From positions 8,184,001-8,248,000 of the forward strand of contig NZ_CP016793.1 of assembly GCF_001701025.1 (NCBI RefSeq): a stretch of 64,000 nucleotides of DNA, in the 5' to 3' direction. Origin of the DNA: Lentzea guizhouensis. GTDB lineage: Bacteria > Actinomycetota > Actinomycetes > Mycobacteriales > Pseudonocardiaceae. Of the stretch, positions 8,266-38,779 are shown one piece after another; within the stretch, counting starts at the first letter, position 1; every line of letters starts with the position of its first letter. The notes beneath the pieces were generated by a model, which worked only from the letters and a program-made list of their open reading frames with translations, did no database searches and was not told where the DNA came from. The position numbers and the translations under genes were made by a program.

Positions 8266-8410
8266 CGTCGTTGTGCCGCACCAGAGTGCGGACGATTGCC
8301 ACGACCTGATCCGCGGTCTTGCCGGTGCCGTACACCACCTCCGGCAGCCCTTGGCGGGCCTCGCGGCCGACGTCGACCCTGGCAAAACCGAGGTCCACGG
8401 CCTCGCTGTC
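8262..8410 (-). pseudogene. 5' remnant of larB (cofactor carboxylase)
   Basis: The minus-strand frame reads DLGFARVD, REARQGLPEVVYGTGKT and VVAIVRTLVRHNDG, which is the N-terminal segment of LarB, the enzyme that carboxylates and hydrolyses nicotinate adenine dinucleotide for the LarA cofactor. The normal first ~30 residues are replaced by a dispersed repeat (8411-8466) and the C-terminal AIRC-like catalytic domain is absent. At about 8262 it runs out of frame into the larE remnant. It cannot be functional. Confidence 0.65.
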
Positions 8411-8466
8411 GGTAGTAGGAAAGTGCTCGTTGGTCTTGAGTTGGTGGTACTTGCAGACGCCATCAG
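8411..8466. repeat. Half copy of the gene-end palindromic element
   Basis: These 56 bases match 38720-38775 at 45 positions, including an uninterrupted TTGAGTTGGTGGT. It corresponds to the right half of the 126-bp palindrome at 38643-38768. In both places it begins 5-10 bases beyond the stop codon of a minus-strand gene (glycerate kinase here, a GH43 gene there). The left half is missing here. Confidence 0.75.
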
Positions 8467-9590: not shown

Positions 9591-10870
9591 CGCACCGCCC
9601 CGGTGACGTACGGGATGGTCTGCGGTCCTTCAGGAAGCACGCACAGGCGGGCTCCGGGACCGGCGGCCGCGAGCGCCTCCGCCACCGTGCGCGAGATGTC
9701 CGCGGTCTGCTCCAGGTGTGCCGTGGCCAGCTCCGCGTCGGTCAGGTGCGAGGTGTGCACGACGACCCGGCAGTCGGCCTGGATGCGCGCCTGGATCTGC
9801 ACCTGCCACTGGTCGGGCACGGTGACCCGGCGCGAGGAGATCTCCGCGGACAACGCCGCGGGCGAGCCGGCCGAGGCCAGCACCTCGCGGTACGAGCCGT
9901 GGCCGGGGAACCCGTCGCGGCACTCGGCGGCGCACACGATCGTGCCGCCCGGCCGCACCACCTGGTAGGCCGCGGACATGCCCTTCACCGACTGGTAGAG
10001 GTTCTGGTCGAGCGGGTAGCCGGAGTTCGTCGTCACCACCACGTCGAAGGGCTGCGGCACCGGCCGCATCGCGACCTCGCGGGCCGTGCGCACGGCCGCC
10101 GCGTGCATCTCCAGCAGGTCTCCGCCGAACGCGGCGACGACCTCCCTGTCCTGGTTCAGCACCACGTCGAACCCGAACGTCACACCGGTCGCGGCCGCGA
10201 TGGCGCGCACGTCGTCGTGCACCGGGTTGCCCTCGACAACGCCCCAGGCCGCCCGCGGGTGGCCGATGCGGCGGGCGTCGTGCAGCACCAGCACCGTCTC
10301 CAGCGCGGCGAGACCGGGTGCGACGAGCTTCGGCCCGCCGGAGAACCCGGCGAAGAAGTGCGGCTCGACGAACCCCGTGGTGATCCGCACGTCCGCGGCC
10401 ACCCACTCGCTGTTGAGCCACACCGGGACGTCCGCGCCGAGCTTCCCCAGCCACGTCAGGCTGTCCCGGTCGCGGGCGTCGTGGTTGACGACCCGCACCG
10501 AGTCGACCACCTCGTCGCCGAACATCGCCCGCAGCTCCGCGTCGGTGTTGCCGCGGTGGGTGCCGGTCGCGACCAGCACCACGACGTCGTCGAGGTCGAC
10601 CAGCCCGTCGAGCTCCGCCAGCACCGCCGGGATCATCAGGTGGCGCGGCTGCGGCCGGGTGCCGTCACAGGCGGAGATCGCCACGGTCTGCCCGCGGCGC
10701 ACCCGGTCGCGCAACGGCGGTCCCGCGACCGGGAACCGCAACGCCCGGCGCAGCACCTGTTCCGGCGGTTCCGGCACCGGGTGGTGCCGCGGTGTCACGA
10801 CCGTGGTCACCGCCGGGTCGACGCGCAGGTCCAGTCCCGTCTCGCCGTAGGCCGGCCGCACGACGTCCAT
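9587..10870 (-). CDS. larA: LarA-family nickel-dependent racemase
   Basis: 427 aa, normal length for LarA (lactate racemase; relatives racemise other 2-hydroxy acids). The motif EPHFFAGFSGGPKLVAPG carries the conserved His and the Lys that covalently holds the nickel-pincer cofactor, and LHDARRIGHPRA supplies a further conserved His region. ATG 10870 overlaps the upstream amidohydrolase stop by ATGA, and its own stop overlaps the broken glycerate kinase start. Its cofactor genes larB and larE survive only as a fused remnant at 8091-8410, so activity would depend on cofactor genes elsewhere. In context it may interconvert a hydroxy acid formed during sugar-acid breakdown, for example lactate from a deoxysugar; this is inference. 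Confidence 0.85.
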   Translation of the reverse strand: MDVVRPAYGETGLDLRVDPAVTTVVTPRHHPVPEPPEQVLRRALRFPVAGPPLRDRVRRGQTVAISACDGTRPQPRHLMIPAVLAELDGLVDLDDVVVLVATGTHRGNTDAELRAMFGDEVVDSVRVVNHDARDRDSLTWLGKLGADVPVWLNSEWVAADVRITTGFVEPHFFAGFSGGPKLVAPGLAALETVLVLHDARRIGHPRAAWGVVEGNPVHDDVRAIAAATGVTFGFDVVLNQDREVVAAFGGDLLEMHAAAVRTAREVAMRPVPQPFDVVVTTNSGYPLDQNLYQSVKGMSAAYQVVRPGGTIVCAAECRDGFPGHGSYREVLASAGSPAALSAEISSRRVTVPDQWQVQIQARIQADCRVVVHTSHLTDAELATAHLEQTADISRTVAEALAAAGPGARLCVLPEGPQTIPYVTGAVR

Positions 10871-38637: not shown

Positions 38638-38642
38638 CTTGA

Positions 38643-38768
38643 CGTCTGCAAGTACCACCAACTCTTGATCGAACCACCTCCAACCACTACCAACCTGTTC
38701 GCCGCGCGGCGAACAGGTTGGTAGTGGAAAAGTGCCTGTTGATGTTGAGTTGGTGGTGCTCGCAGATG
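38643..38768. repeat. 126-bp two-tier palindromic element between convergent genes
   Basis: The core 38684-38727 is a perfect 44-bp palindrome centred at 38705/38706 (left arm begins CCACTACCAACC). Outer arms 38643-38664 and 38747-38768 pair at 19 of 22 positions and share exactly the same centre; the 19 bases between tiers do not pair. It starts 5 bases after the galM stop and ends 11 bases before the GH43 stop codon on the other strand. The right half recurs at 8411-8466. It could be a bidirectional terminator and/or a MITE-like repeat. No transposase is nearby. Confidence 0.85.
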
Positions 38769-38779
38769 CGGTCAGGCGG

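What the first reader, a model, noticed from the sequence alone, without database searches (positions are those of the whole stretch)
38643..38768. 126-bp two-tier palindrome at convergent gene ends, with a half copy 30 kb away
A perfect 44-bp palindrome (38684-38727) sits inside a second pair of 22-bp arms (19/22 paired) that share the same centre. The element begins 5 bases after the galM stop and ends 11 bases before the opposite GH43 stop. Its right half recurs at 8411-8466 (45/56 identical), again just beyond a minus-strand stop codon. Association with stop codons, rather than with promoters, suggests a mobile or structural 3'-end element: bidirectional terminator, RNA-processing site or MITE. 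I know of no named family for it.
Basis: seen in the sequence. Interest (0 to 1): 0.72.

Follow-up and report, generated by a model that had tools for sequence, protein, structure and literature searches.

The report
Stop-codon palindromes with their own nuclease
The palindrome between two genes of this soil bacterium appears to be a shrunken copy of a mobile DNA element that settles right behind genes, and the full-size element carries a gene for a DNA-cutting enzyme of a different kind from the usual transposases.

Summary
The two-tier palindrome is real. It is one of 35 analysed copies (22 hairpins of 49-50 bp, 11 nested palindromes of 129-161 bp, 2 partial) in this 10-Mb Lentzea genome. 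Copies sit at gene 3' ends: 23 of 35 lie between convergent genes (7 of 48 gene pairs in the window are convergent), median 9 bp from the stop codon. Related Lentzea species lack many insertions. In three species the same ends bound a 1,074-bp element with one gene: an AbiEi-like half fused to a Vsr-type endonuclease (fold of homing endonuclease I-Bth0305I). The window copy pairs one end of each type, so it is best read as an internally deleted, non-autonomous derivative; the 'half copy' (8404-8459) is one end. Homologous nucleases across Actinobacteria are often flanked by other, lineage-specific palindromes. In 160 Micromonosporaceae genomes nuclease and repeat abundance go together (31 of 46 repeat-rich with it, 9 of 114 without). 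I propose a REP/RAYT-like system built on a Vsr-type nuclease. Polymorphic insertion is shown by genome comparison; the nuclease's role is inferred. No terminator T-tract was found (0 of 66 sides); termination remains a possible side effect.

The parts
38643..38768 (.). non-autonomous palindromic element, long class (130 bp if counted from 38641 to 38770)
38684..38727 (.). inner perfect 44-bp palindrome
38643..38664 (+). left outer arm, family terminal sequence CGTCTGCAAGTACCACCAACTC
38747..38768 (-). right outer arm, 19 of 22 complementary to the left
38641..38705 (+). B-type end (resembles the gene-3' side end of the 1,074-bp element; score 12 vs 8)
38706..38770 (-). A-type end (resembles the gene-5' side end of the 1,074-bp element; score 24 vs 3)
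8404..8459 (-). single A-type end (half copy), 42 of 56 identical to the right half of the element

Best explanation
The element is an internally deleted, non-autonomous copy of a mobile palindromic element. The full element (1,074 bp, same ends, seen in three other Lentzea genomes) encodes one protein of 306 aa or so: an AbiEi-like N-terminal part and a C-terminal Vsr-type (PD-(D/E)XK) endonuclease. Proposed mechanism: the AbiEi-like part recognises the palindromic ends, the nuclease part nicks or cuts at ends and/or target, and repair or replication copies the palindrome into a new site; survivors are those that landed at 3' ends of genes, often exactly where two convergent genes' stop codons meet, so that both genes keep a stop. 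It thus works like REP sequences with their RAYT enzyme, but with an unrelated nuclease. Shown: repeat family, placement, polymorphic sites, full element with matching ends, deletion-derivative make-up, the same arrangement with other palindromes around homologous nucleases, and co-occurrence. Inferred: that this nuclease causes the movement, and every chemical step.
Against: The window's own genome (66 arms) and G012 (74) have no close nuclease; G021 (25) neither: loss or past activity must be assumed. 9 of 114 Micromonosporaceae genomes are repeat-rich without the nuclease and 15 of 46 have it without being rich in this pattern; kinship is not corrected for and the cut-off of 20 arms was chosen after seeing the counts. 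51 of 76 loci do not pass the 99% mark and 30 not the 95% mark. In Mycolicibacter only 1 hit per pattern in 400 kb. Four 98-100% identical copies in G015 share outer flanks and may have moved as part of a larger composite. Of transposase families only Y1_Tnp (RAYT type) was sought (absent); another mobiliser is not excluded. Target duplications are suggestive only.
Confidence: 0.65

Rival explanations
1. The palindromes are MITE/REP-like repeats moved by some other transposase, and the nuclease gene is a passenger or a selfish gene that uses them as landing pads.
For: Copy-rich genomes without a close nuclease exist (G000, G012, G021; 9 of 114). Only one transposase family was searched.
Against: The nuclease is the only ORF called over almost the whole 1,074-bp element, and homologues in other lineages are flanked by different palindromes specific to those lineages, which a chance passenger would not be.
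Confidence: 0.2
2. The copies are selected bidirectional terminators or mRNA 3'-end stabilisers; repetition reflects conserved function rather than mobility.
For: Placement at stop codons; stems up to 24 bp; arms of one copy match each other more than shuffled arms (596 vs 574.8, sd 5.35); relatives carry unrelated long hairpins at the same junctions (S050 in 6 of 7 relatives, S051 in 2 of 2).
Against: No T-tract (0 of 66 sides); near-invariant outer sequence over 56 arms goes beyond what a stem needs; patchy presence in 12 of 24 Lentzea genomes; clean empty sites; a full-size gene-bearing version.
Confidence: 0.1
3. The element is a host-benign regulatory or nucleoid site (protein-binding palindrome) with the AbiEi-type protein as its regulator.
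For: AbiEi-type antitoxins bind inverted repeats (PMC7319586, listing); N-terminal half is AbiEi-like.
Against: Copies lie behind genes, not before them: 1 of 35 in a divergent gap; the protein carries a conserved nuclease half.
Confidence: 0.05

Closest known systems
REP sequences with RAYT (TnpA-REP), GTAG superfamily
   Same: Short palindromes in tens to hundreds of copies, mostly behind genes and between convergent genes; an enzyme gene flanked by the same palindromes; patchy, lineage-specific families (PMC3733652, abstract and passages).
   Different: Enzyme is a Vsr-type REase with an AbiEi-like half, not a Y1 HuH enzyme; no unpaired GTAG tag; stems of 24 bp against 5-13 bp; Y1_Tnp absent from G000.
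CGTC-tagged REPs
   Same: Palindromes with no known transposase; that paper says they 'apparently lack a dedicated transposase'. The Lentzea ends contain CGTC.
   Different: There CGTC is unpaired, stems are 8-9 bp and loops 4-5 bp; here CGTC is inside a long paired arm. No Actinobacteria occur in the searched text. Kinship not claimed.
MITEs
   Same: Internally deleted derivatives with both terminal repeats of a longer gene-bearing element.
   Different: No classical transposase in the parent element; target duplication only suggestive.
Vsr-type homing endonuclease I-Bth0305I and DUF559 proteins
   Different: I-Bth0305I is titled a mobile intron protein in the PDB; here no intron, and the gene lies between palindromes.
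AbiEi antitoxins (AbiE type IV toxin-antitoxin)
   Different: No partner toxin gene inside the element; fused to a nuclease.
Intrinsic terminators
   Same: Long GC-rich stem right behind a stop codon.
   Different: No T-tract; repeated sequence; polymorphic presence.

Membership tests
REP/RAYT | short palindromes, many copies, mainly behind genes | tested here: met
REP/RAYT | enzyme gene flanked by the same palindromes | tested here: met
   Lentzea; Micromonospora
REP/RAYT | enzyme is a Y1 (HuH) transposase | tested here: not met
   PF01797 absent from G000; enzyme fold is Vsr-type
REP/RAYT | unpaired GTAG tag at the foot of the stem | tested here: not met
   flank profile of 68 arms of the own genome shows no conserved tag outside GGCGTC
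CGTC REP | unpaired CGTC, stem 8-9 bp, loop 4-5 bp | tested here: not met
   CGTC lies within the paired arm; definition from PMC3733652 passages
MITE | both terminal repeats of an autonomous element, no gene | tested here: met
   window copy has one B and one A end; parent element
MITE | target site duplication | tested here: inconclusive
   G018 copy at the L220 site: TCAG on both sides, G021 copy at S062: TCCTGA / TCCTAA; other sites unclear
MITE | parent encodes a transposase | not testable with these tools
   parent encodes a Vsr-type nuclease; activity needs an experiment
intrinsic terminator | stem-loop followed by a T-tract | tested here: not met
   0 of 66 sides with 5 or more T in 12 nt
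AbiE toxin-antitoxin | AbiEi antitoxin with AbiEii toxin partner | tested here: not met
   AbiEi-like half met but the element holds one gene of 306 aa and no room for a toxin gene; neighbours outside the element not screened
Vsr-type REase | fold and conserved acidic/histidine positions | tested here: met

The most novel reading that the evidence does not exclude
A previously unnamed class of mobile palindromes in Actinobacteria, in which a fusion of an AbiEi-type DNA-binding protein with a Vsr-type nicking endonuclease, and no transposase, copies hairpin DNA into stop-codon sites; its solo palindromes make up REP-like families in Lentzea, Micromonospora and others.
Probability: 0.5. Interest if true: 0.9.

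Novelty: new variant of a known kind. Interest (0 to 1): 0.8.

Why it matters
Many bacterial palindromic repeats have no known mobiliser; the 2013 survey of REPs left that open for its CGTC class. This case offers a concrete enzyme-repeat pair, with empty and filled sites and many genomes, that makes the question testable. If the nuclease does move its palindrome, Vsr/DUF559-type proteins, common and mostly unnamed in Actinobacteria, gain a role, and a source of hairpins behind genes is explained.

Tried and rejected
Rfam at gathering threshold: 0 matches in the window. Y1_Tnp: absent from G000, while the control rang in 5 of 14 genomes; other transposase families were not searched. CGTC-REP membership: rejected on structure. 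Intrinsic terminator: rejected as the sole reading (no T-tract). Empty site for the window copy itself: the galM-side and GH43-side flanks were found apart in the relatives listed (list truncated), so it cannot be shown. The flank profile outside the arms gave no conserved tag. A first end-typing run had the two ends of L095 mislabelled (gave 6 of 18); one search replaces it. One loose lead was a shared head such as CCCTGCTGTTGG before GGCGTC in some copies; not general. Sites L218 and L223 gave doubtful overlaps and are not counted as clean. Literature: ten searches found no paper linking DUF559/MTES_1575/AbiEi nucleases to palindromic repeats; subscription papers and preprints are not held there.

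Selection of rows: 12 site pairs were queried (rpsA, L098, the window and 9 own copies); 5 were followed by alignment. Of 20 G022 loci fetched, 12 were queried and 11 gave data. The 20 Micromonospora copies come from one genome and were picked from paired arms in a truncated list.

Full report
OBSERVATION. The structure is far from chance (z -11.3).

A REPEAT FAMILY. The genome (G000, one contig of 9,997,872 b) has 33 + 33 arms at up to 3 mismatches, control 3 + 4. I analysed 35 copies: 22 short hairpins of 49-50 bp (arms ggcgtcTGCAAGTACYACC.. almost touching), 11 long ones of 129-161 bp (lengths) that hold a second palindrome inside, and 2 partial ones, among them the half copy. In 28 short copies (22 own, 6 from G022) the outer part of the arms is almost invariant, and within a copy the two arms agree more than shuffled arms (596 of 672 against 574.8, sd 5.35, maximum 595 in 5,000 shuffles).

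PLACEMENT. With a codon-usage gene caller of my own, 23 of 35 copies lie between convergent genes, 11 between a 3' and a 5' end, 1 between two 5' ends; 57 facing 3' ends have a median distance of 9 bp, 52 of them at most 30 bp; the 13 facing 5' ends are 36 bp or more away. In the window 7 of 48 adjacent gene pairs are convergent (binomial p about 1e-11 for 23 of 35). In Micromonospora alfalfae the analogous palindromes behave alike: of 20 copies, 19 with both sides called, 11 convergent, 7 mixed, 1 divergent, median stop distance 35 bp.

POLYMORPHIC SITES. Pattern matches occur in 12 of 24 Lentzea genomes, with 25-153 arms in seven of them and none in twelve. The 126-bp query itself matched 11 of 60 relatives at E <= 0.01, ten of them Lentzea, the own genome included. 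At 15 orthologous sites compared with up to seven relatives each, 9 have a relative with at most 7 nt between the conserved flanks where the filled genome has the element: clean empty sites. Some empty sites have overlapping stop codons of convergent genes (L231, L225, S062). Target duplications can be suspected (TCAG at the L220 site in G018, TCCTRA at S062 in G021) but not proven. At S050 (6 of 7 relatives), S051 (2 of 2), L226 and L227 (G019) and S070 (G006) a relative carries an unrelated long hairpin at the same place, so such junctions often hold some hairpin.

THE FULL ELEMENT. In G019 (L. alba by contig) two exact arms lie 1,074 bp apart and enclose one ORF of 306 aa. Close homologues exist in 4 of 24 Lentzea genomes. 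In G019, G022 and G015 (L. nigeriaca) the element is exactly 1,074 bp; in G018 (L. aerocolonigenes) its left end is lost at a contig end. Three share the rpsA 3' site; G015 has it elsewhere and is empty at rpsA. The two ends of the full element differ below the terminal arm (A at the gene's 5' side, B at the 3' side). 12 of 18 long copies have one A and one B end, the rest B/B or tied, none A/A; the window copy is B (12 vs 8) and A (24 vs 3); the half copy is A (20 vs 3). So the window element is best read as an internal deletion derivative.

BEYOND LENTZEA. A protein search gave 172 homologues (120 listed), at least 11 of the listed ones on contigs of 1,044-1,110 b, about the element's length, as expected if assemblies break at repeats. 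Of 79 named loci, 76 had enough flank: 25 exceed the 99th percentile of 912 mismatched left/right pairings and 46 the 95th (0.8 and 3.8 expected). The flanking sequences are palindromes that differ by lineage (Micromonospora, Mycolicibacter/Mycobacterium, Blastococcus, Catellatospora and others). In 21 of 21 Micromonospora/Verrucosispora genomes the flanking palindrome's arm occurs 35-161 times (control 0-1); in 7 genomes of other genera that hold other versions it occurs 0-12 times. In 160 Micromonosporaceae genomes, 46 have the nuclease at E <= 1e-25: median 53 arms, 31 with 20 or more; the 114 without: median 2, 9 with 20 or more (Fisher 4e-14; kinship not corrected, cut-off chosen after the fact). 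Against a simple rule: 15 nuclease holders are not rich in this pattern, and in Mycolicibacter a 400-kb sample held one hit per pattern.

MECHANISM. By analogy with REP/RAYT, I propose that the AbiEi-like half binds the palindrome and the Vsr-like half nicks DNA, after which repair or replication copies the palindrome. AbiEi antitoxins are reported to bind inverted repeats (PMC7319586, abstract start in a listing). Only the genomic pattern is shown; binding, cutting and dependence are untested. The 3' placement may come from target choice (stop-codon tetranucleotides) or from selection against other sites; these data cannot separate the two.

NOVELTY. Ten full-text searches found no report of this link (listed in Tried and rejected). 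The survey of REPs (PMC3733652; abstract, section list and 12 passages seen) has GTAG REPs with RAYT and CGTC REPs without a dedicated transposase, and the term Actinobacteria does not occur in it. I file the case as a new variant of REP-like systems; if the nuclease is the mover, the enzyme class is new for this role.

Noticed in passing
L205, L207, L210, L236, L245 (junctions S050, L226, L227): A second hairpin type in Lentzea with 20-27 bp stems and a core like ACCTGAGGT or CACGTGAGGTG, at the same convergent junctions; may be terminators or another repeat family.
   Followed up: no
L292-L295 (G015), L299-L300 (G015), L224, L302-L305: Copies nested inside other palindromic flanks (for example CCGGCAAAGTCG.. 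/ ..CGACTTTGCCGG); four copies in G015 are 98-100% identical and may have spread as composites.
   Followed up: partly
L212-L215, L219, L221, L222 (G022): Several arms share an upstream stretch around GCAGGCTGCCAGAAGTTGTGTCC, so a larger repeat seems to carry an arm.
   Followed up: no
L197 (G012, site S062): TCCTAG-ACGCCAGAAGAGCAG-TCCTAA at a site empty in G001 and G006: looks like a remnant left by loss of an element.
   Followed up: partly
L076-L078, L082 (G018): Several contigs begin within an arm, so these repeats break assemblies and copy numbers in drafts are lower bounds.
   Followed up: no
L289 (Mycolicibacter), around 9892-10155: Two weak hits to the nuclease-flanking palindrome about 200 b apart in the 400-kb sample.
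   Followed up: no
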